From NCBI RefSeq assembly GCF_000179555.1, contig NZ_AECZ01000008.1, positions 1 to 64,000 of the forward strand: 64,000 nucleotides of DNA, given 5' to 3'. Positions 49,207-59,328 of this stretch are shown here, piece by piece. Positions within the stretch are counted from its first letter, which is position 1. Every line of letters starts with the position of its first letter. Position numbers and translations under genes: made by a program. The notes beneath the pieces are model-generated. The model ran no database searches. It was not told the origin of the DNA and saw nothing but the letters and a program-made list of their open reading frames with translations. Source of the DNA: Solidesulfovibrio fructosivorans JJ] (GTDB lineage Bacteria; Desulfobacterota; Desulfovibrionia; Desulfovibrionales; Desulfovibrionaceae).

Positions 49207-50139
49207 ATGCCGCGCCCGCTGCTTTTCGCCCTGCTCTCGATTTTCCTCGCTCTGCCCGTCCACGCCGCCGAACCCGCGCCGCTTAGGGTCGGCTACATGC
49301 CGGTCGGCGACTGCCTGCAATTCTTCGTGGCCGAGGCCGAAGGGTATTTCAAGGCCGAAGGCCTGGCCGTCACGGGCGCGTCCATGAAGGGCGGCGCGGT
49401 CATCGCCCCGGCCGTGGAAGGCGGCGAGCTGGCCGTCGGCTGGTCCAACACCGTGTCCATCATCCTGGCCCACGCAAAGGGTTTCGACTTCACCTTCCTG
49501 GCCCCCGGGGCCGAAGGCGTGGCCGGCACCAACGACGTCCATGCGCTGCTCGTGCCGGCGGATTCCAAGATCACCTCGGTCAAGGAGCTGGCCGGCAAGA
49601 CCGTGGCCATCAACACCCTCGGCAACATCAACGAGGCGGCCATGCGCGCCCTGGCCGAAAAAGCCGGGATCGCTCCCGATTCCATCCGCCTCGTGGAAGT
49701 GCCCTTCCCGGACATGGCCACCGCCCTGGCCAAGGGATCGGCCGACGCGGCGCTCACCCTCGAACCCTTCGTCACCGACGCCGTGTCGCGCGGCGTGGCC
49801 AAGGTGCTTGATCCCTCACCCCATGCCGCCTTCGGCAACCCCTATCTGATCGGAGCCTGGTTCGCCAAAAAGTCCTGGATCAAGGCCCACCCCGAGGAAG
49901 CGGCAGCGTTCGTCCGGGCGGTGACCAAGGCCTCGGCTTTCATCACCGCCCACCCCGACAAGGCCCGTGAAATCCTGCGCGGCCGCACCAAACTCTCGCC
50001 CGAACTGGCCGCCAAAATCACCCTGCCGCGCTTCCCCGAAAAGCTCGAACCGGCCGCCCTGCAAGGCGTCATCGACGTCTGCGCCCGCTTCGGCCTCATC
50101 CCCAAGCCCTTCGCCGCAGGCGACGTGTTGGGGAGGTGA
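49207..50139 (+). CDS. ABC transporter substrate-binding protein, NMT1/SsuA type
   Basis: The start is ATG after CAGGAGGCCCGT. A signal peptide (MPRPLLFALLSIFLALPVHA) is followed by a periplasmic fold (LRVGYMPVGDCLQFFVAEAEGYF, GGAVIAPAVEGGELAVGWSN, NTLGNINEAAMRALAEKAG, ALTLEPFVTDAV). The family includes receptors for nitrate, taurine, sulfonates and pyrimidine/thiamine precursors. The ligand cannot be told. It is last in the operon; the low-GC helicase begins 86 bases later. Confidence 0.9.
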   Translation: MPRPLLFALLSIFLALPVHAAEPAPLRVGYMPVGDCLQFFVAEAEGYFKAEGLAVTGASMKGGAVIAPAVEGGELAVGWSNTVSIILAHAKGFDFTFLAPGAEGVAGTNDVHALLVPADSKITSVKELAGKTVAINTLGNINEAAMRALAEKAGIAPDSIRLVEVPFPDMATALAKGSADAALTLEPFVTDAVSRGVAKVLDPSPHAAFGNPYLIGAWFAKKSWIKAHPEEAAAFVRAVTKASAFITAHPDKAREILRGRTKLSPELAAKITLPRFPEKLEPAALQGVIDVCARFGLIPKPFAAGDVLGR

Positions 50140-50225
50140 ACGGGAAATGCGAAGGAGCAACCCCAACATGCGCGCAACAGGTTCACCCGCAACAACTGCG
50201 GAAGGCTCCCCACTTTAAGGTAAAA

Positions 50226-53200
50226 ATGAATAAAAGCAGTATGATATCACTCGTCGAGTCTGACAAGGAGCGCCTCCTCGCCATTCTCAATTCGTGGCAC
50301 AAGATTGAATTCTTCATACCATTCGATCTTGATGGCAGCGTTGTCCAAGATACCAACCAACGTAAAAAGATAAACTGGTTGCATAAGGACTCACTCCAAC
50401 AGGGAATGGAGATATTCAACTTCCCGGCGTGTTCCGACGACAAAATCCCCAACTACTCCTTGTTTCTTGGCGTATTCGACAAAAATGAGATTGCGCCTAT
50501 TTGCCAACGCATGCTTCAACTGGGTCCCGATGACAATGATACATTTGAAAATCAGGAAAGAGGAGACTTGGAAGGGGCCACCTGCTTCGCCAAAATCAAG
50601 CTCAACGAACATGGAGAACCGCTGTTTGATGCAATCTCAATCTCAACGTTGCCCTGGGCGTTGGGGATGGTTCAAACCCTCGGACTTGACGGGTTGAGCG
50701 CCAGCAGTTTCGCTTTGGCCCAGGCGCGGTTAGTCGAGAGGCTTCAAAACTTCGCCAATCAACGCGAAACCGCAGGGGCTCCGCAGCCATTGACCGCCGA
50801 AGACATTTTCGCCCTGCGCGACCTGCTCTACGATTGGGCTAAATTCACGCCTAAAGACGAAACGGCCCCTGCAATCCTTCAGTGGCAAGAGTCACACGCC
50901 AAATCCGGTAATGCCGATAAAGACAACACCCCTGAAGATGACGCCCTCCAGGAGCCGGAGGTGGATATCCTCAACAGTTTTTTCATCAAGGATCTTGAAA
51001 GCGCAATGGAGGATGCGGAAGCGGGCAAGATGTCGCGCTCATTGCGCGAATACCTGACGCCACGCAACCCGGCGGAGAGAATCGACATTTACTCGAAAGA
51101 AGGCAGGAGGACGCTGCAAGAAAAGCTGCGCCCGAACATGTTCAACCGTGGACATTGGTTCGACGCTCCCGACCATCTCATGAGCCTGATGCAGCAGTTC
51201 GCCATCAACATGGCGTTCGAGGTCAATGAACAGCGCGGCATATTTTCGGTAAACGGACCTCCCGGCACCGGCAAAACAACCTTGCTGCGGGATATCATCG
51301 CCGAGAACGTCGTCCGGAGGGCTGGCGTGCTCGCCGCATTTCGAACGGCCGCATGCGCTTTTGACGGGAAAAAACAACTCCCGTTGGGGAATGGGACATT
51401 GGTCTGCACGCTCAAACCGGAACTCGCCGGCTTCGAGATGATTGTCGCCTCATCGAATAACGCGGCGGTTAACAACATATCCAAGGAGCTTCCAAAACAA
51501 GCATCCTTGGGAAAAGTTTGGCGCGACAAGACGTATATCCAGCAAACTGCCCAGAAGATCGCAACCAAGAACAATGGCAACAAATTCACGCCGCTCCCTC
51601 CAGAAAAAACACAATGGGGCCTCATCGCGTGCGCCTTGGGGAACTATGCTAACCGCAAGAAATTCAATGAAGGCTTTTTCTTTTATCCTGACAATCAAAA
51701 TCGCAGTCCGGCACATAAGCTTGGCCTGCTCCATATCTACGACTGGATAGATCAATATAACGGTCCAACGTTTGACGAAGCAAAAACGACATTCCTGTCC
51801 AAACAAACACTTGTTGAAGATGAGCTTACAGATCGCACTTTGTTTGCTTCTTTGGCTGAGGAATTGGCAGGACAAACGGAAGACTCTTACGTTGCCGGAA
51901 ACATAGAAGATCTTGAACATTGTCAACAGGAACTTACCCGCATTAAGCAAGCGCTTGCCCGCGCCACGCAAGAAGCCACCGAAATCCGGCACTCGATTCA
52001 CCAAGCCGAGATGGAATGGCTTACCCTCGAACAACAAAAACCGGGCTGGTTCAGTCGCCTTTTCCGGCTTTCTTCTGACAGAAAATACCGCTTGGCCGCC
52101 CGCGTCCTCACGTCGAAGCGCGAGTGTTTGGAGGCGGACATCGCAGCTGTCGACAGCAGAGTGAACTTGCTGCGGGACCAAGAAATTCAGGCGGACACTT
52201 GCTGCCGGGAAGCTGGCGGGCGATTGGCAAGGCGGCGGCGGGAATGGGAAGTAAAACAGAAAGAATTTGAGGCACTAAAGCAACATTTCAGCAATTTCGA
52301 CATACCTCGAACGCCAGACGAGCTTGAAACCGAGGCATTCCAAATACGCGGCCTCTGGAACGACGAAAGGCTCTCAACGCTTCGGACCGAGCTCTTCAGC
52401 GCGGCGCTGACCCTGCATGAAGCCTGGCTTGCCGACGTCGGCAGGAACAAAGACCGCGGCGGAGCAGGTTTTAGAGGCAACATCATGGCGATCAGCAATT
52501 ACCTCAAGGGACATGCCCGCCTCGACAACCTGGACGCCCTCACAATCTGGCAAAGCCTCTTCATGATCGTGCCTGTTGTTTCAACCACCTTTGCTTCCTT
52601 TGCAACCCAGTTCAAAGACGTCGGTTCCAACATGCTTGGCTGGCTGTTCATTGACGAGGCGGGGCAAGCTGTTCCGCAGGCGGCGGTCGGCGCATTGCGG
52701 CGGACGCAAAACGCCGTCGTCGTCGGCGACCCGCTCCAGATAGAACCGGTCTTCACGGTCCCTGCAAACTTGATCCGCTCCATTTCCGCACTTTCTCCAC
52801 ACACGAAAGAAGGCGACTACGCGCCGGACGTGGTTTCGGCCCAGAGCCTGGCCGATGCCTGCAATACGTACGGCGCGTATACATCGTCCTATTCAAGGGA
52901 AAGCCAGACATGGATCGGCAGCCCACTAAGGGTTCACAGGCGTTGTATCGAACCCATGTTTTCCGTTTCAAACAACATCGCATACGAGGGGAGGATGATT
53001 TTTGGCCTTCCCCACAAATCCGCCCCAAACCAACCGCCCTTGCCTCTTGAAAGCGCGTGGGTGAATATCCTTGGACAAACAACCAACCAACAGATTGTTC
53101 CAAGCCAGATTGAATTCGTTATCCGGCTCATAATAAATACGTTCATGCAGCAGAATGAACTCCCCGCAATTTATGTCATATCCCCGTTCAAGGCCGTGAC

Positions 53201-53573
53201 GAAAGAACTTCGAAAAAAACTAAAAGGCGATTGGGCAATTTATGGAGCGACGAACAAGCCGGCAGAACGCACTCTCAACGACTGGTGCAAAGCGAGAATA
53301 GGGACAGTACACACTTTTCAAGGCAAGGAAGAAGATTGTGTTATCATGGTCCTCGGCGCGGACAGCGACACTAAAATCGGGGCAGCCCAGTGGGCCGCAT
53401 CCAAACCAAACCTTTTAAATGTCGCGATTACTCGTGCGAAAAAACGGTGTTTCATCGTAGGAGACAAGAAACTTTGGGCGAGCATGAAGTACTTTCCATC
53501 AGCCCAAAGAGAGTTCAAAACGATCACACCCGAGATGGCCTTAAAAGCGACTTCACTCGTTAGTATTACGTAG
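50226..53573 (+). CDS. Stand-alone superfamily 1 (Upf1/DNA2-like) helicase, low GC
   Basis: The start ATG (MNKSSMISLVESDK) has AAGG upstream and gives 1115 residues. A roughly 330-residue N-terminal part has no domain I can name. The helicase core holds Walker A GPPGTGKTT (near 344), DEAG box (FIDEAGQAVPQ, near 808), VVVGDPLQIEPV, GTVHTFQGKEEDCV and VAITRAKKRCFIVGD (near 1065). An insert between the RecA halves is largely coiled coil (about 561-685). Codon use and AT content differ sharply from all neighbours (some lines are near 40 % GC), so it was probably acquired. Such lone helicases occur in defence islands (compare Mokosh and related systems), but no partner is adjacent and the role is inferred. 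Confidence 0.8.
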   Translation: MNKSSMISLVESDKERLLAILNSWHKIEFFIPFDLDGSVVQDTNQRKKINWLHKDSLQQGMEIFNFPACSDDKIPNYSLFLGVFDKNEIAPICQRMLQLGPDDNDTFENQERGDLEGATCFAKIKLNEHGEPLFDAISISTLPWALGMVQTLGLDGLSASSFALAQARLVERLQNFANQRETAGAPQPLTAEDIFALRDLLYDWAKFTPKDETAPAILQWQESHAKSGNADKDNTPEDDALQEPEVDILNSFFIKDLESAMEDAEAGKMSRSLREYLTPRNPAERIDIYSKEGRRTLQEKLRPNMFNRGHWFDAPDHLMSLMQQFAINMAFEVNEQRGIFSVNGPPGTGKTTLLRDIIAENVVRRAGVLAAFRTAACAFDGKKQLPLGNGTLVCTLKPELAGFEMIVASSNNAAVNNISKELPKQASLGKVWRDKTYIQQTAQKIATKNNGNKFTPLPPEKTQWGLIACALGNYANRKKFNEGFFFYPDNQNRSPAHKLGLLHIYDWIDQYNGPTFDEAKTTFLSKQTLVEDELTDRTLFASLAEELAGQTEDSYVAGNIEDLEHCQQELTRIKQALARATQEATEIRHSIHQAEMEWLTLEQQKPGWFSRLFRLSSDRKYRLAARVLTSKRECLEADIAAVDSRVNLLRDQEIQADTCCREAGGRLARRRREWEVKQKEFEALKQHFSNFDIPRTPDELETEAFQIRGLWNDERLSTLRTELFSAALTLHEAWLADVGRNKDRGGAGFRGNIMAISNYLKGHARLDNLDALTIWQSLFMIVPVVSTTFASFATQFKDVGSNMLGWLFIDEAGQAVPQAAVGALRRTQNAVVVGDPLQIEPVFTVPANLIRSISALSPHTKEGDYAPDVVSAQSLADACNTYGAYTSSYSRESQTWIGSPLRVHRRCIEPMFSVSNNIAYEGRMIFGLPHKSAPNQPPLPLESAWVNILGQTTNQQIVPSQIEFVIRLIINTFMQQNELPAIYVISPFKAVTKELRKKLKGDWAIYGATNKPAERTLNDWCKARIGTVHTFQGKEEDCVIMVLGADSDTKIGAAQWAASKPNLLNVAITRAKKRCFIVGDKKLWASMKYFPSAQREFKTITPEMALKATSLVSIT

Positions 53574-53842
53574 CGGCGGTGTTATGGTGAATGGCCTGAG
53601 GTGGTCACAAGAAATTGGACAGCCCGTTAAGCTCTCGTCCAATTGAGCCCATGCCGCCTTCGAAGCCAAGTGGCCTTCTCGGCCTACGTCCATAGGGCGA
53701 CGTCCATCATAAGGGTCCCCCTCTCGCGCTCTCCCCTCCCCAAAACTTCCAACGGTGACAATCTGTTATCGTTAAAAGTCTTTGGAAAGGGGGTCTGGGG
53801 GAAAACTTTTCTACAGAAAAGTTTTCCCCCAGTCTTATCCTC
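53574..53842. other. Spacer after the helicase with a palindrome and possible element remnant
   Basis: AATTGGAC (53613-53620) and GTCCAATT (53637-53644) form an inverted repeat close after the helicase stop. The sequence from about 53595 to 53700 (TGAGGTGGTCACAAG and following) does not resemble its surroundings and could be the end of an old mobile element. I cannot name it. The composite repeat f begins at 53711. Confidence 0.3.
53711..53832. repeat. Composite double-hairpin repeat, copy f (left half damaged)
   Basis: Only the right arm of hairpin A remains (AAGGGTCCCCCTCTCGCG, 53711-53728). Then CTCTCCCCTCCCCAAAACTT, a spacer, AAAAGTCTTTGGAAAGGGGG and hairpin B (53795-53832). The missing arm borders the odd sequence after the helicase gene, so the event that brought the helicase may have cut into this repeat. 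Confidence 0.85.
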
Positions 53843-54802
53843 TTAATGCACCTTGGCCAGGAAGGCCGTGACCACGGGCAGGGCCGGTTTGCCCTTCCTG
53901 GTGGTGACGCCGTCGAGCCATTTTTTCAGGATATCCGGGTTGGCTTTGAGCCACTTGAGCGCCGCGCGACGGGGTTGTTCCTCTTTGCTGTTGTGCAGCG
54001 TGGTCATGATGGTGTTCATCATGGGGATGGGGAAGGTGAGATTTTTGAGGAACTTCGCGACGTTTGGATACTGCTTGTCGAAGCCTTTGCGGATGTTGGT
54101 GTAGACGCTTGCGGTTCCGTCGTTGGGGCCGAAGGTCGCGTCGGTGGAGCCGGTCAGGTACTTCATGTCGATGGTCTCGTTCATGCTGTGGGGCGACCAG
54201 CCGAGAAAAACGATCCACTGCTTTTTCCGGGCAAAGGCCTGCACCTGGCCGAGCATGCCGGCTTCGCTCGAGGACACGAGCTTGAAATCCCCCAGGTCGA
54301 ACATGTTCTTGTCGATCATGGCCTGGATGATCTCGTTGCCGTCGTTGCCTTCCTCGATGCCGTAGATCCTGTGGTCCAGCTTGTCGGCATATCTGTGGAT
54401 GTCGGAAAAATCCTTGAGGCCGGCTTCGTACTCGTAGGTGGGCACGGCCAGGGTGTACTTGGCCCCGGTCATGTTTTCGCAGTATTTGATGACCGAGCCG
54501 TCCTTGAAATATTTCTCCGCGATGGTGGCCATGGACGGCATCCAGTTGCCGAGAAACACGTCCGCCTCGCCCGTGGCCATGGCCTTGTAGGCCAGCGGCA
54601 CGGACACCATGAGGTTGCGGGCCTTGTAGCCGAGAACATCCAGAATCTGAACCGCAAGCTCGGTTTTGATGGTCACGCCCGTCCAGCTCACGCTGGCGAA
54701 GGTGATCTCGCCGGGCTTGGCCAACGCCTGCCCGGCCATCAGCGCCACAGACAACGCCAGACACATGGCAAAGACCAGCTTCCTGGTTGTTGATCGAAGC
54801 AT
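53843..54802 (-). CDS. choX: Choline/glycine betaine-binding periplasmic protein (ChoX-like)
   Basis: I start at ATG 54802 (MLRSTTRKLVFAMC) with AAGGAGGTCTG upstream; the longer open frame runs through repeat g. The 319 residues begin with a signal peptide (cleavage near QALA). The mature part matches choline receptors of the OpuAC fold: VFLGNWMPSMA, GAKYTLAVPTYEYEAGLKDF, YGIEEGNDGNEIIQAMIDKN, SSSEAGMLGQVQAFA, FLGWSPHSMN and NLTFPIPMMN. No permease or ATPase gene of such an importer is beside it. It is read in the same direction as betB but separated by repeat g. Confidence 0.85.
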   Translation of the reverse strand: MLRSTTRKLVFAMCLALSVALMAGQALAKPGEITFASVSWTGVTIKTELAVQILDVLGYKARNLMVSVPLAYKAMATGEADVFLGNWMPSMATIAEKYFKDGSVIKYCENMTGAKYTLAVPTYEYEAGLKDFSDIHRYADKLDHRIYGIEEGNDGNEIIQAMIDKNMFDLGDFKLVSSSEAGMLGQVQAFARKKQWIVFLGWSPHSMNETIDMKYLTGSTDATFGPNDGTASVYTNIRKGFDKQYPNVAKFLKNLTFPIPMMNTIMTTLHNSKEEQPRRAALKWLKANPDILKKWLDGVTTRKGKPALPVVTAFLAKVH

Positions 54803-54841
54803 CAGACCTCCTTGGGTTGAGGTGGTGGGAGCTTGGGGTGG

Positions 54842-55006
54842 GCGAGAGGGGAACCCTTTTTGAAAAAAGGGTTCCCCTCTCGCGCTCTCCCCTCCCAAAA
54901 ACTTCTCACGATTACGGATGCTTTAACGACAACGCTTTGTAACCGTTAGAAGTCTTGGGAAAGGGGGTCCGGGGGGAAACCTTTCTTCAGAAAGGTTTCC
55001 CCCCGG
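54842..55006. repeat. Composite double-hairpin repeat, copy g (clearest copy)
   Basis: Hairpin A (54842-54883, GCGAGAGGGGAACCC and complement), GCTCTCCCCTCCCAAAAACT, a 60-base spacer with ATTACGGATGCTTTAACG, GAAGTCTTGGGAAAGGGGG, and hairpin B (54969-55006, CCGGGGGGAAACC and complement). It sits between choX and betB. The end of betB lies inside hairpin B. Confidence 0.9.
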
Positions 55007-56480
55007 TTACACCAAACCACGCAACCGCCTTCGGCGCGTGGTTCTGGTAGACGTGCTTGACCTCCTGGTACTCTTCCAGGCCGATGCGGCCGAGTTCGCG
55101 GCCAAGTCCGGACTGCTTATAGCCGCCCCAGGGGGCCTGGGTGAAATACACGTTGAAGTCGTTGACCCAGACCGTGCCGAACCGCAGCTTGCGCGAAACC
55201 CGGGCGATGCGGTCCGGGTCGCGGGTCCAGAATCCGGCCGACAGGCCGTAGATGGTGCTGTTGGCGCGGCTTATCGCCTCTTCCTCGGTCCTGAAGCGCT
55301 CCACGGTGATGACCGGGCCGAAGACTTCTTCCTGGACCACGCGCATGGCGTTTTCGCAACCCGTAAAAAGCGTGGGCAGGTAGTAGAAGCCGCCGGCAAG
55401 GGCCGCATCGTCGGGACGCGATCCGCCGCAGACGAGCTTCGCCCCTTCCTTTTGGGCGATGGCCACGTAGCCTTCCACCTTGTCCCGGTGGGCGGCGGAA
55501 ATAAGCGGCCCCATCTCCGTGCCCTCGTCAAGGCCGTTGCCCAGGCGGATAGTGCGGATGCGTTCGGCCAGCGCCTCGACGAAGGCGTCGTGGACGCCGT
55601 CCTGGAGCATGAGCCGCGCCCCGGCCGAGCAGATCTGGCCGGCGTGGAAGAAGACGGCGTTCAGGGCGTAATCCAGGGCCACGTCGAAGTCGGCGTCGTC
55701 GAAGACGATGTTGGGATTCTTGCCGCCAAGCTCCAGGGCGACCTTTTTCACGTTGCCGGCCGCCGCCCGCATGATGGACTTGCCGGTGACGATACCGCCG
55801 GTGAAGGAGATAAGGTCCACGTCCGGGTTGGCCGCGAGTTCCGCGCCGACCGGATCGCCGGGGCCGGTGAGCGTATTGAAGACGCCGGGCGGAAACCCGA
55901 CCTCCTCGGCCAGCTCGGTGACGCGTAGCGTGGTCAGGGGCGTGAGCTCGCTCGGCTTGACCACGATGGCGCAGCCGGCGGCCAGCGCCGGGGCCATCTT
56001 CCAGGCGGCCTGGAGCAGCGGGTAGTTCCAGGGCGATATCTGGCCGCACACGCCCACGGGTTCGCGCACGAGAAGGCTCGTGGAATCCGGGTTGGGCGAG
56101 GCGATGACCTCGCCGCCCTCCTTGTCGGCCAGCCCGCCGAAGTAGCGAAAGATGCCGGCGATGTCGGCCATGTCCCAGCGCGACTCCTCCAGCGTCTTGC
56201 CGGTGTCGAGCGTCTCCAGTCTGGCCAGCTCCTCGGCGTGTTCCTCGATCAGGTCGCCAACGCGTCGCACCATGGCCCCGCGCTTGGGGGCCGGCACGTC
56301 GGACCAGACGCCGCGGTCGAAGGCGCGGCGGGCGGCGGCGATGGCGGCCAGCGCATCCTCGCGTCCGGCATCGGCCACCTGGGCGAGCGTCTCGCCCGTG
56401 GCCGGGTTGACGGTCGGGCGCGTGGCCCCCGAGGCGGCCGGTCGCCAGACGCCGTCGATAAAGAGCTTGTCGAAAACCAT
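54987..56480 (-). CDS. betB: Betaine aldehyde dehydrogenase
   Basis: It oxidises betaine aldehyde to glycine betaine with NAD(P)+. In 497 residues I see GQISPWNYPLLQAAWKM, the nucleotide-binding SFTGGIVTGKSI, catalytic Glu (VALELGGKNPNIVFDD) and Cys (FFHAGQICSAGARL), and EEVFGPVI. The choice of BetB among aldehyde dehydrogenases rests on its place beside betA. The last six residues (TGGKPF) and stop are read from hairpin B of repeat g. Ribosome site AAGGAGGCG; ten bases separate it from betA. Confidence 0.88.
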   Translation of the reverse strand: MVFDKLFIDGVWRPAASGATRPTVNPATGETLAQVADAGREDALAAIAAARRAFDRGVWSDVPAPKRGAMVRRVGDLIEEHAEELARLETLDTGKTLEESRWDMADIAGIFRYFGGLADKEGGEVIASPNPDSTSLLVREPVGVCGQISPWNYPLLQAAWKMAPALAAGCAIVVKPSELTPLTTLRVTELAEEVGFPPGVFNTLTGPGDPVGAELAANPDVDLISFTGGIVTGKSIMRAAAGNVKKVALELGGKNPNIVFDDADFDVALDYALNAVFFHAGQICSAGARLMLQDGVHDAFVEALAERIRTIRLGNGLDEGTEMGPLISAAHRDKVEGYVAIAQKEGAKLVCGGSRPDDAALAGGFYYLPTLFTGCENAMRVVQEEVFGPVITVERFRTEEEAISRANSTIYGLSAGFWTRDPDRIARVSRKLRFGTVWVNDFNVYFTQAPWGGYKQSGLGRELGRIGLEEYQEVKHVYQNHAPKAVAWFGVTGGKPF

Positions 56481-56490
56481 GTTCGCCTCC

Positions 56491-58155
56491 TTAGACGGCG
56501 TCCGGGGAGGACGCGGTTGCGGGTTCGTGGCGGTAAAAGGGTCGCGAGGACGGCTCGGGCGGCGTGTTGCCGAGAATGGCGTCGGCGGCCTTTTCAGCCA
56601 GCATGAGCACCGGCGCGTAGATGTTGCCGTTGGTGATCGTCGGCATGACCGAGGCGTCCACCACGCGAAGGCCGCGCAGGCCGTGGACGCGCAGTTTCCC
56701 GTCGGTGACGGCCATGGGATCGCTCCCCATCTTGCACGTGCAACTCGGGTGGTAGGCGCTCTCCCCTTCCCGGGCCACGAAATCGAGGATCTGCTCGTCG
56801 GTCGCCACGTCCGCGCCCGGAGCCAGCTCGTCGCCCCGCAACTCGTCGAAGGCCGGCTGGTTGAGGATCTTCCTGGCGCAGTGGATGGCCTCGACCCATT
56901 CCTTGCGCTCCTTTTCCGTGGACAGGTAATTGAACAGGATGCTCGGATAGACGGCCGGGTCGTGGGAGGTGATCTTCACGCGGCCGCGCACGTCGGTGTT
57001 CATGGGGCCGACGTGGACCTGATAGCCGTGGCCGGCGGCCGGGGCCGAGCCGTCGTAGCGGATGGCGATGGGCAGAAAATGGAACTGGAGGTTGGGGTGG
57101 CCAACCTCGTCGTTGCCGCGAATGAAGCCGCCGGCCTCGAAGTGGTTGGTCGCGCCGATGCCCTTGCGCAAAAAGAGCCATTCCAGGCCGATTTTCGGCT
57201 GGTTCCACCATTTGAGGGCCGGGAACATGCTGACCGGCTTTTTGCAGGCGTACTGGACGTAGAGTTCCAGATGGTCCTGAAGGTTTTCGCCCACGCCCGG
57301 CAGGTCGGCCACGGGCGTGATGCCAAGCGAGGCGATCTCGTCGGCGTTGCCCACGCCTGAAAGCTGGAGCAGTTGCGGGGAATTGATGGCCCCGCCGCAG
57401 CAGATGATCTCCCCGCCTTTGACCTCGCGGACCTTTCCCCCCCGGCGGTATTCCACGCCCACGGCCCGGTCGCCCTCGAAGAGGATGCGGCTGGCCGTGG
57501 CCCGGGTCACGATGTCCAGGTTCTCGCGGTTCTTGATGGGGTGGAGGTAGGCCCGGGCGGCGTTGTGGCGGCGGCCGCGATAGGTGGTGCGGTCGAAGCG
57601 GCCGAAGCCTTCCTGGCGCTCGCCGTTGACGTCGTCGGTCAGGTTGTAGCCGGCCTGGACCGTGGCCGCAAAAAAGGCGTCGAAAAGCGGATTGTCGCAT
57701 TCAGGGGTGGTCAGGGCCAGGGGGCCGCCCACGCCGTGGTAGCCGTCCGCCCCGGCAAGGCGCGTCTCCACGCGCTGAAAATACGGGAGGACATGGGCGT
57801 AGCCCCAGTCTTCGAGGCCGTCGTTCGCCGCCCAGTTCTCGTAATCCCCGGCGTTGCCCCGGATGTAGATCATGCCGTTGATGCAGCTCGAGCCGCCGAG
57901 GACCTTGCCGCGCGGCTGGTAGATGCGCCGGCCGCGCATGTACGGCTCGGGATCGGATTCGTACCACCAGTTGTAGGTCTTGCCGGCCAGTGGATAGGTC
58001 AGGGCGGCGGGCATGTGGATGCGGAAATCGAACCGGCGGTCCCAGGGCCCGGCCTCGAGGACCAGGACCTTGTGCTTGGGATTGGCGCTTAGGCGGTTGG
58101 CCAGGACGCACCCGGCCGAACCGCCGCCGACGATGATGAAATCATACTGCTTCAT
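56491..58155 (-). CDS. betA: Choline dehydrogenase (GMC oxidoreductase)
   Basis: It oxidises choline to betaine aldehyde. The start is ATG 58155 with AAGGAGCAGAC upstream, overlapping the gntR stop (ATGA), giving 554 residues. FAD motif IIVGGGSAGCVLANRLS at the N-terminus, GMC signatures GKVLGGSSCINGMIY and GAINSPQLLQLSGVG, the catalytic His region SAYHPSCTCKMG, and PTITNGNIYAPVLM near the end. The family is membrane-associated and passes electrons to the respiratory chain. Confidence 0.92.
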   Translation of the reverse strand: MKQYDFIIVGGGSAGCVLANRLSANPKHKVLVLEAGPWDRRFDFRIHMPAALTYPLAGKTYNWWYESDPEPYMRGRRIYQPRGKVLGGSSCINGMIYIRGNAGDYENWAANDGLEDWGYAHVLPYFQRVETRLAGADGYHGVGGPLALTTPECDNPLFDAFFAATVQAGYNLTDDVNGERQEGFGRFDRTTYRGRRHNAARAYLHPIKNRENLDIVTRATASRILFEGDRAVGVEYRRGGKVREVKGGEIICCGGAINSPQLLQLSGVGNADEIASLGITPVADLPGVGENLQDHLELYVQYACKKPVSMFPALKWWNQPKIGLEWLFLRKGIGATNHFEAGGFIRGNDEVGHPNLQFHFLPIAIRYDGSAPAAGHGYQVHVGPMNTDVRGRVKITSHDPAVYPSILFNYLSTEKERKEWVEAIHCARKILNQPAFDELRGDELAPGADVATDEQILDFVAREGESAYHPSCTCKMGSDPMAVTDGKLRVHGLRGLRVVDASVMPTITNGNIYAPVLMLAEKAADAILGNTPPEPSSRPFYRHEPATASSPDAV

Positions 58156-58910
58156 GTCTGCTCCTTTGGTATCCGGTCCGCGTCGTCCTCGCCGCCCCGC
58201 TCCAGGCGGCGGCGCAGCCAGGCGTAATGCAGGGAAACGTGGGACAGGGCGGCCAGGGGCTCGCGCGCGGCGATGGCCCGGGCGGTGTCGCGCCAGTTGG
58301 CCACGGTGCGTTCCCGGCAGCCAGGGTCTTCGTACAGGGCCATGTCCAGGGAACTGAACCCGAGCTGCACCGCGCGCATGATCCATTCGAAGACCGGGTT
58401 GTCGGCCATGCGGGCAAGCGCCAGATTGCACTCGCGGTCGCGCTCGGCCACGAGGTCGAGGTCCGGGGCGTCGCCGGCGGCCGCCGCGGCCAGCGCGTCG
58501 GCCAGGCCGGCCAGCTCCCGCATGTCCGCTTCCGTGGCCCGGGCCACGGCCATGACGATGAGCGCCCGGTCCACGGTCTCGCGAAACTCGATCAGCCGCG
58601 CCGGCGACACCTGGCGCTGCTTGAGGAAAAGGGCCAGGGACTCGCTGACGTTGTCCACGCCCACGGCCTTGACGTAGGCCCCGCCGCGCGCGCCTTTTCG
58701 GATCTCGAGCAGGCCCTTTTGCTTCAGCGCCCGCAAGGCCTCGCGCACCACGCCGCGCGAGGTGCGAAACTGGGCTTGCAGCTCGCGCTCGCTCGGCAGG
58801 CTTTGCCCCGGCGCAATGGACCCGTCGGTGATGGCGGCTTCGATTTGCAGGGCCACGTCCTCGCTGGCCCGACCCGGCCGGGCCGGGGAAAACAACAGTA
58901 CGGCTTCCAT
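58152..58910 (-). CDS. GntR/FadR-family regulator of the bet operon
   Basis: The N-terminal winged HTH (ITDGSIAPGQSLPSERELQAQF, SRGVVREALRALKQKG) is followed by an FCD ligand domain (from about residue 95; DRECNLALARMADNP). The start at 58910 or 58919 is open; a longer frame to 58946 is less likely. It overlaps betA, forming gntR-betA-betB; proteobacteria more often use BetI (TetR family) here. Two GGTnnnACC sites upstream suggest self-control with choline or betaine as signal. Confidence 0.88.
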   Translation of the reverse strand: MEAVLLFSPARPGRASEDVALQIEAAITDGSIAPGQSLPSERELQAQFRTSRGVVREALRALKQKGLLEIRKGARGGAYVKAVGVDNVSESLALFLKQRQVSPARLIEFRETVDRALIVMAVARATEADMRELAGLADALAAAAAGDAPDLDLVAERDRECNLALARMADNPVFEWIMRAVQLGFSSLDMALYEDPGCRERTVANWRDTARAIAAREPLAALSHVSLHYAWLRRRLERGGEDDADRIPKEQT

Positions 58911-58926
58911 GGATGGCATCCTTAAT

Positions 58927-59009
58927 GGTCCTACCTTAATTCCCAATTATTGCGAAAAAATGCCGAATAAACCCATTATCAACATAAAGCCGCGACAATT
59001 GGTAGGACC
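58927..59009 (-). promoter_or_regulatory. Paired GntR-type operators of the bet operon
   Basis: GGTCCTACC at 58927-58935 and its exact complement GGTAGGACC at 59001-59009. Each is a GGTnnnACC site of the kind bound by FadR-like GntR proteins (TGGTnnnACCA type). Their centres are 74 bases apart, seven helical turns, so two dimers would lie on the same face and could form a loop over the promoter between. Confidence 0.65.
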
Positions 59010-59051
59010 TTTGGTAAGCAGGGGTTGCGGCGCTTGTCAAGCCGTCGGCGT

Positions 59052-59079
59052 TTGACGCGCGCCATTTCGGTCTTATTAT
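59052..59079 (+). promoter_or_regulatory. Strong sigma-70-like promoter 1 upstream of glutamate synthase
   Basis: TTGACG, 16 bases, TATTAT is the best promoter match in the window. Transcription would begin near 59086, over 300 bases before the glutamate synthase start, and run through a GC-rich stretch of hairpins. Confidence 0.5.
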
Positions 59080-59086
59080 CCACAAC

Positions 59087-59243
59087 TGGGCGTATGGGCC
59101 GGGATTGGCGCGGCCCGCGCCGTGACGGGTGGGACGGCGCATGCCTCCGGGAAGGGAGGCTGTGGAAACCGAAGAATCGTCGGCGTGATCGCGGGCGAGG
59201 CGCATGCCATCTGGCCTGACTTTTCAAAAAAGTTGAAAAGTCA
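59087..59243 (+). ncRNA. Possible structured leader or small RNA upstream of glutamate synthase
   Basis: Perfect stems at 59107-59121 (GGCGCGG/CCGCGCC) and 59143-59160 (GCCTCC/GGAGGC), two copies of GGCGCATGCC (59136-59145, 59199-59208; 63 bases or six turns apart) and an 11-bp palindrome TGACTTTTCAA/TTGAAAAGTCA at 59217-59243. No protein is likely. It fits no riboswitch I know; it may also be a protein-binding region instead of an RNA. Confidence 0.3.
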
Positions 59244-59328
59244 CAGGGGCATCGGATTTCGCTAAAACAATCTTCCGCTGGAAATTATTTACATTTTTCG
59301 CAAGAGGACCCCTTTTTTTATTTTTTGC

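What the first reader, a model, noticed from the sequence alone, without database searches (positions are those of the whole stretch)
50226..53573. Low-GC lone superfamily 1 helicase with unknown N-terminal domain
It is the only long low-GC gene in the window. The protein has an unrecognised 330-residue N-terminal part and a coiled-coil insertion. It sits between an ABC operon and a damaged copy of the composite repeat, with strange sequence (53595-53700) that could be an element remnant. Large lone helicases of this class are known or suspected in anti-phage defence. No partner gene is present, so it would have to work alone.
Basis: partly seen in the sequence, partly recalled or inferred. 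Interest (0 to 1): 0.7.

Follow-up and report, generated by a model that had tools for sequence, protein, structure and literature searches.

The report
Lone horizontally acquired UPF1-like helicase
A single acquired gene here encodes a complete motor protein of the UPF1 type, related to the motor of known bacterial anti-virus systems but without their cutting domain or any partner gene; it may be a stand-alone immune protein, though this is unproven.

Summary
The gene is real: ATG 50226 to stop 53573, 1115 aa. Its GC is 52%, against 59-68% in five neighbouring genes. It belongs to an uncharacterised clade of UPF1-like superfamily 1 helicases. All helicase motifs are conserved. A long coiled-coil hairpin sits between motif Ia and motif II. 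The N-terminal 300 residues are conserved in the clade and fold confidently, but match no solved structure.

It is absent from 13 congeners.

The closest named defence protein is the Mokosh type II helicase MkoC (E 4e-68), but the C-terminal PLD nuclease is missing here and in all 22 aligned relatives. At 24 unrelated sites no partner gene recurs.

The defence reading is partly supported. More distant clade members sit beside Azaca, Gabija/Shango and Septu, and a Vibrio relative lies between Hhe and Lamassu. Most of the nearest relatives are lone genes among housekeeping genes, fixed at one site in 23 Rhizobium and 20 Janthinobacterium loci. Verdict: a new variant of a known kind; stand-alone defence is the best single explanation, about 0.5.

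The parts
50226..53573 (+). UPF1-like superfamily 1 helicase, 1115 aa, no nuclease domain
   Evidence: ORF; Pfam AAA_11/AAA_12; PADLOC MkoC 3.6e-68 over residues 317-1086; Foldseek/VIA best matches SETX, UPF1, Sen1, Aquarius, Z 14-16
50211..50225 (+). probable ribosome-binding site (CTTTAAGGTAAAA) before ATG 50226
   Evidence: read from sequence
50226..51125 (+). N-terminal domain, residues 1-300: first helix with WHKIEFF motif, then an alpha/beta domain in the position of the UPF1 stalk and 1B domain
   Evidence: AlphaFold pLDDT 82 alone and in context; no fold match with E <= 0.001; no Pfam match in the window protein; conserved in 30 relatives
51255..51281 (+). Walker A / motif I (GPPGTGKTT, residues 344-352)
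   Evidence: invariant in the family
51771..52442 (+). long helical insertion with antiparallel coiled-coil hairpin (residues 516-739, long helices 557-603 and 616-687)
   Evidence: model; VIA matches to coiled-coil hairpins over 538-690
52653..52667 (+). motif II DEAGQ (residues 810-814)
   Evidence: invariant
52725..52748 (+). motif III GDPLQIEP (residues 834-841)
   Evidence: all but L837 invariant
52923..52946 (+). motif IV-like PLRVHRRC (residues 900-907)
   Evidence: invariant
53301..53330 (+). motif V GTVHTFQGKE (residues 1026-1035)
   Evidence: invariant or nearly so
53409..53438 (+). motif VI (residues 1062-1071, NLLNVAITRA)
   Evidence: R1070 nearly invariant
53597..53710 (.). remnant of one end of an IS3-family insertion sequence, truncated inside
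   Evidence: 77-89% identical to both ends of about 1.2-kb IS elements with DDE transposase, four other hits in this genome and more in congeners
53711..53840 (.). composite repeat, right half only (left hairpin arm lost)
   Evidence: compared with intact copy at 54842-55008 and G004 copies
50146..50165 (.). possible degraded stub of a left hairpin arm after the ABC gene
   Evidence: G004 has GCGAGAGGGGGACCC at this place, window has GCGAAGGAGCAACCCC

Best explanation
The gene is a horizontally acquired, single-gene accessory element. It encodes a UPF1-like superfamily 1 (5'-3' class) nucleic-acid translocase of a nuclease-less clade whose nearest named defence protein is the Mokosh MkoC helicase. 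Its most likely role is stand-alone defence against phage or other mobile DNA. Shown here: a complete, conserved helicase core; a UPF1-like overall fold; a coiled-coil hairpin inserted between motif Ia and motif II; an N-terminal domain of unknown fold where UPF1 has its stalk and 1B domain; no nuclease domain; no conserved partner gene; acquisition in this lineage. Inferred: the N-terminal domain and stalk select an abnormal RNA or single-stranded DNA made by the invader; ATP-driven translocation then strips or remodels it (transcripts, R-loops, replication intermediates); the hairpin acts as a lever or as a docking site for a host nuclease or polymerase.
For: Best PADLOC model for all 23 members scanned is MkoC; profile-profile E 7e-45 to MkoC proteins over the core. 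Fold matches are UPF1, SETX, Sen1, SMUBP-2, Aquarius and Dna2. Motifs invariant. Present in 1 of 14 genomes of the genus; the ABC gene and the glutamate synthase region are adjacent in 8 congeners, and the part unaligned to the closest relative G004 is 50153-53710. Low GC, IS3 remnant. Twenty distinct sites among 62 loci; no recurring partner at 24 sites. Defence neighbours in the clade: Azaca, Gabija plus SngC beside an integrase, PtuAB-like, Hhe and Lamassu. Purifying selection, median dN/dS 0.10-0.18, yet 6 of 23 Rhizobium copies lack an intact ORF, so it is dispensable. Coiled-coil-bearing UPF1-like helicases (CnuH) are described in predicted RNA-targeting CoCoNuT systems (PMC11090510).
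Against: In the closest clade nearly all sites are surrounded by ordinary genes, and two genera keep the gene at one site with normal GC. The defence-rich contexts belong mostly to more distant members, some with a different N-terminal extension. No background rate of defence neighbours was measured. The defence helicases named in the papers read mostly act with a nuclease; this one has none. Substrate, direction and phage phenotype are untested.
Confidence: 0.5

Rival explanations
1. It is an accessory nucleic-acid housekeeping helicase (for example R-loop removal, RNA surveillance or repair under stress) that spreads horizontally but has no specific role against phage.
For: Neighbours in the nearest clade are mostly housekeeping; fixed chromosomal sites with native GC in Rhizobium (next to tRNA/5S/23S genes) and Janthinobacterium; strong purifying selection; structural relatives UPF1, SETX, SMUBP-2 and Aquarius work in RNA metabolism.
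Against: Sporadic distribution, one-gene insertions at many unrelated sites, broken copies, presence on plasmids, integron-like arrays and prophage contigs, and the motor's kinship with MkoC.
Confidence: 0.3
2. It is a derived Mokosh type II system that has lost its PLD nuclease, or that recruits a PLD nuclease encoded elsewhere in the genome.
For: MkoC is the best PADLOC hit; a true MkoC with PLD occurs in the same genus in G009.
Against: All 22 aligned relatives (35-44% identity) also end soon after motif VI, with no room for a PLD domain; N-terminal domains not detectably related; in the quick tree the MkoC pair is separated from the rest with SH-aLRT 99-100.
Confidence: 0.1
3. It is an orphaned motor subunit of a multigene system such as a CoCoNuT (CnuH), transferred without its effector and now decaying or neutral here.
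For: Coiled-coil insertion after Walker A as in CnuH; the insert has truncated ends.
Against: Intact ORF; no McrB, McrC, wHTH or nuclease partner recurs at 24 unrelated sites; family under purifying selection.
Confidence: 0.1

Closest known systems
Mokosh type II MkoC (COG1112-type helicase plus PLD)
   Same: Best PADLOC match; core homologous (profile-profile E 7e-45); single-gene; helical stretch before motif II
   Different: No C-terminal PLD domain, which all four full-length MkoC controls have; N-terminal domain not detectably related; separate clade
CnuH helicase of type II/III CoCoNuT systems (PMC11090510)
   Same: UPF1-like SF1 helicase with a large coiled-coil helical insertion after Walker A and an N-terminal stalk/1B region
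   Different: CnuH is linked to McrB-like GTPase, McrC and CnuE effector genes; none occurs here or recurs at relatives' sites. No CnuH sequence was compared directly
UPF1 / SMUBP-2 / Sen1 / senataxin
   Same: Helicase core fold and motifs, VIA Z 13-16; insertion in the first RecA domain
   Different: 14-18% identity; isolated N-terminal domain finds no UPF1 1B match; bacterial lone gene
Hhe, Nhi, PDC-S37 single-gene defence helicases
   Same: Share short helicase stretches
   Different: Weak partial matches only; the large domains of those proteins are absent

Membership tests
UPF1-like (SF1) helicases | Two RecA domains with motifs I, II, III, IV-VI in order | tested here: met
   Invariant GPPGTGKT, DEAGQ, GDPxQIEP, RVHRRC, GTVHTFQGKE (some positions nearly invariant) and nearly invariant motif VI arginine
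UPF1-like (SF1) helicases | UPF1/SMUBP-2-like overall fold | tested here: met
   Foldseek top hits SETX, Aquarius, Sen1, UPF1, E to 3.7e-15; VIA Z 14-16 over 430-518 residues
UPF1-like (SF1) helicases | Stalk plus 1B beta-barrel domain | tested here: inconclusive
   Whole-model alignments start mostly at residues 9-15, at the start of the UPF1 helicase core, but the N-terminal domain alone matches nothing
UPF1-like (SF1) helicases | ATP-dependent 5'-3' unwinding | not testable with these tools
   biochemistry needed
Mokosh type II (MkoC) | Helicase core of the MkoC/COG1112 type | tested here: met
   PADLOC 3.6e-68 over profile 247-949; hhalign 7e-45
Mokosh type II (MkoC) | C-terminal PLD nuclease domain in the same protein | tested here: not met
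   No PLD in Pfam scan; profile 950-1136 unmatched; controls L130, L134, L135, L136 all show PLDc_2
Mokosh type I (MkoA/MkoB) | Linked PLD gene and kinase domain | tested here: not met
   No kinase domain; flanking genes are ABC substrate-binding protein and OpuAC; no recurring partner
CoCoNuT type II/III | UPF1-like helicase with coiled-coil insertion after Walker A | tested here: met
   model against the description in PMC11090510
CoCoNuT type II/III | Linked McrB-like GTPase, McrC and CnuE effector | tested here: not met
   None among window neighbours; no recurring neighbour family at 24 sites
Anti-phage defence system | Protects a host against phage | not testable with these tools
   plaque assay needed
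Anti-phage defence system | Variable, mobile, defence-island context | tested here: inconclusive
   Variable in window genus; defence neighbours for several distant members, few in the nearest clade; no background rate measured

The most novel reading that the evidence does not exclude
A widespread clade of single-protein bacterial immune factors in which a UPF1-like helicase with a unique N-terminal recognition domain stops phage or plasmids with no nuclease of its own, by translocating along and remodelling invader RNA or DNA: a bacterial counterpart of UPF1-type RNA surveillance.
Probability: 0.3. Interest if true: 0.7.

Novelty: new variant of a known kind. Interest (0 to 1): 0.42.

Why it matters
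Helicase-based immune systems described in the papers read mostly couple a motor to a nuclease. A conserved clade with motor, coiled-coil lever and a domain of unknown fold, but neither nuclease nor partner, asks whether translocation alone can be immunity, or whether such proteins borrow host nucleases. It also bears on the idea (PMC11090510, PMC5031192 abstract) that UPF1-type RNA surveillance is related to antiviral defence. The family is widespread, and a shorter relative sits on hundreds of Klebsiella plasmid records, so a functional test would be informative.

Tried and rejected
N-terminal domain: profile search against PDB sequences, Pfam on 30 members, Foldseek against PDB and viral models and VIA on the isolated domain gave nothing credible (best VIA Z 4.2). 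A missing match does not show a new fold. Profile comparison of the N-terminal domain with MkoC N-termini: no relation, although both start with a Y/W-containing helix and MkoC L121 has an NSFLID stretch resembling the family's NSFFIKD; treated as suggestive only. A conserved partner gene was sought at 24 sites and not found. Using 'of' with a locus failed, so presence in all Janthinobacterium or Rhizobium genomes was not counted. Viral-contig search for MkoC found none. Literature searches for a described lone UPF1-like defence helicase found only CoCoNuTs and papers mentioning Mokosh; subscription journals and preprints are mostly not held, so a published description may have been missed.

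Full report
OBSERVATION. The ORF at 50136-53573 is long and unambiguous. The functional start is most likely ATG 50226: relatives begin near there and an AAGG ribosome-binding site precedes it. The gene has GC 0.522 and GC3 0.605, against 0.59-0.68 and 0.82-0.92 for five neighbouring genes.

ACQUISITION. The protein occurs once in the own genome. Of 59 genomes searched, no congener has a full-length copy; the partial matches in one congener, G009, come from a true MkoC. In eight congeners the ABC substrate-binding gene (window 50123) is followed directly by the region matching window 59.3 kb onward, the glutamate synthase locus. The closest relative G004 matches the window up to 50152 and again from 53711 onward. 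The stretch that aligns to neither place in G004 is therefore 50153-53710, which is this gene with short flanks. In G004 the two sides lie about 109 kb apart in inverted relation. Because the congeners have the window's order, the inversion is probably on the G004 side. Its breakpoint falls exactly where the gene sits, so gain in the window lineage and loss in G004 cannot be fully separated; absence in the other congeners favours gain.

ENDS OF THE INSERT. It starts TGAGGTGGTC...TTGGACAG and matches both ends of elements of about 1.2 kb carrying an IS3-type DDE transposase, with further matches in this genome and other congeners at 74-89% identity. It is cut inside at 53710. The composite repeat that follows lacks its left hairpin arm: G004 has GCGAGAGGGGGACCCTTTTTGAAAAAAGGGTCCCCCTCTCGC, whereas the window starts at AAGGGTCCCCC. 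A possible degraded left arm lies at 50146-50165. Inference: the gene was inserted, or left behind by deletion, inside the palindromic repeat, next to an IS3 copy that later decayed.

WHAT THE PROTEIN IS. Pfam finds only the superfamily 1 core. PADLOC's best model is MkoC, 3.6e-68 over residues 317-1086, and all 23 family members scanned match it. The AlphaFold model (mean pLDDT 82, 30-sequence alignment) matches senataxin, Aquarius, Sen1, UPF1, SMUBP-2 and Dna2 (VIA Z 14-16 over 430-518 residues). All motifs are conserved: GPPGTGKT, DEAGQ, GDPLQIEP, PLRVHRRC, GTVHTFQGKE and NLLNVAITRA. Residues 516-739 form a long helical insertion with an antiparallel coiled coil between motif Ia and motif II. 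In position this resembles the 1C domain of UPF1 (own knowledge) and the coiled-coil insertion described for CnuH of CoCoNuT systems (PMC11090510).

N-TERMINAL DOMAIN. Residues 1-300 are conserved through the family (mean column identity 40%) and fold confidently alone (pLDDT 82). They have no credible match in Pfam, PDB sequences, PDB folds or viral models. In whole-model alignments the match starts mostly at residues 9-15, at the start of the UPF1 helicase core, so the domain occupies the place of the UPF1 stalk and 1B domain. Whether it is an elaborated 1B or something else is open.

FAMILY AND CONTEXT. A genome scan gave 62 loci (37-51% identity in the best segment, most of them full-length) at 20 distinct sites. 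Twenty-three Rhizobium loci share one site next to an rRNA operon end, 20 Janthinobacterium loci share another, two Rhizobiales loci share a third, and 17 are unique. Those copies have the GC of their surroundings. The scan is pattern-based and is not a census. Six of the 23 Rhizobium copies lack an intact ORF (assembly errors not excluded). Median dN/dS is 0.10-0.18 in both halves of the protein. Across 24 distinct sites, counting three plasmid loci and the window, no neighbour family recurs as a partner.

DEFENCE NEIGHBOURS. Near relative: Vibrio europaeus pVEu, an integron-like array between Hhe and a Lamassu LmuA/LmuB pair. A second near relative, Caballeronia L029, probably has an Mrr-type enzyme about 4 kb downstream; I assign one of two mREase_IV hits to it from the sequence. 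More distant clade members: directly downstream of Azaca ZacABC in G134; next to a tyrosine integrase, Gabija GajAB and SngC in Klebsiella phage record Kp4866-6; with a PtuAB-like pair in Klebsiella pC280_1; with a type IV restriction enzyme in Xanthomonas. A shorter relative occurs on hundreds of Klebsiella plasmid records; the one opened (IncFIB/IncHI1B) has it next to transfer genes. Most near-clade sites have only ordinary neighbours. I did not measure a background rate, so enrichment is suggested for the wider clade and not shown for the nearest one.

RELATION TO MOKOSH. Four full-length MkoC proteins, one of them from the same genus (G009), all carry a C-terminal PLDc_2 domain. The window protein and all its aligned relatives stop soon after motif VI, leaving no room for such a domain. 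The core is homologous (hhalign 7e-45), the N-terminal parts are not detectably so, and a quick tree separates the MkoC pair from the rest (SH-aLRT 99-100, with long-branch warnings). It should therefore not be filed as Mokosh.

MECHANISM. Shown: an intact motor, fold class, no nuclease domain, no linked partner. Inferred from the UPF1 class: ATP-driven translocation on single-stranded RNA or DNA. My best-supported guess is a stand-alone immune translocase whose N-terminal domain and stalk select the target and whose coiled-coil hairpin either pries nucleic-acid complexes apart or docks a host factor. A non-defence accessory role remains a serious rival (0.3).

VERDICT. It is a new variant of a known kind: a nuclease-less, partner-less clade of defence-related UPF1-like helicases.

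Noticed in passing
window 50150-53711 versus G004 (L088, L089): The closest relative has an inversion of about 109 kb whose breakpoint coincides with the gene's position; hairpin composite repeats lie at both G004 breakpoints and may have mediated it.
   Followed up: partly
window 53711-53840, 54842-55008; G004 copies: A composite hairpin repeat (about 130-170 bp, two perfect or near-perfect palindromes) occurs in several copies in this genus and looks like a mobile or REP-like element of its own.
   Followed up: partly
window 53711-59300: The whole betaine-type locus (OpuAC binding protein, aldehyde dehydrogenase, GMC oxidoreductase, GntR regulator) is absent between the same two genes in eight congeners and shared with G004, so it is itself an insertion.
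   Followed up: partly
L130 2992-6630 (G009): A complete MkoC with C-terminal PLD domain in the same genus, next to a topoisomerase-like gene.
   Followed up: partly
L122 1-10633 (G134): Azaca ZacABC directly followed on the same strand by a clade member: possible functional add-on.
   Followed up: no
L124 5994-18928 (Klebsiella phage record Kp4866-6): Integrase, clade member, HNH-like gene, GajB, GajA and SngC in a row: a defence island at a prophage end, deposited as a phage.
   Followed up: partly
L071 and about 540 Klebsiella plasmid records: A shorter relative (964 aa) whose match begins only at query residue 221 is spread over Klebsiella plasmid records, in the opened record next to transfer genes, function unknown.
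   Followed up: no
L008 2702-6257 and window 54987-58431: The Brucella endophytica relative also lies near an aldehyde dehydrogenase and a GMC oxidoreductase; probably coincidence.
   Followed up: no
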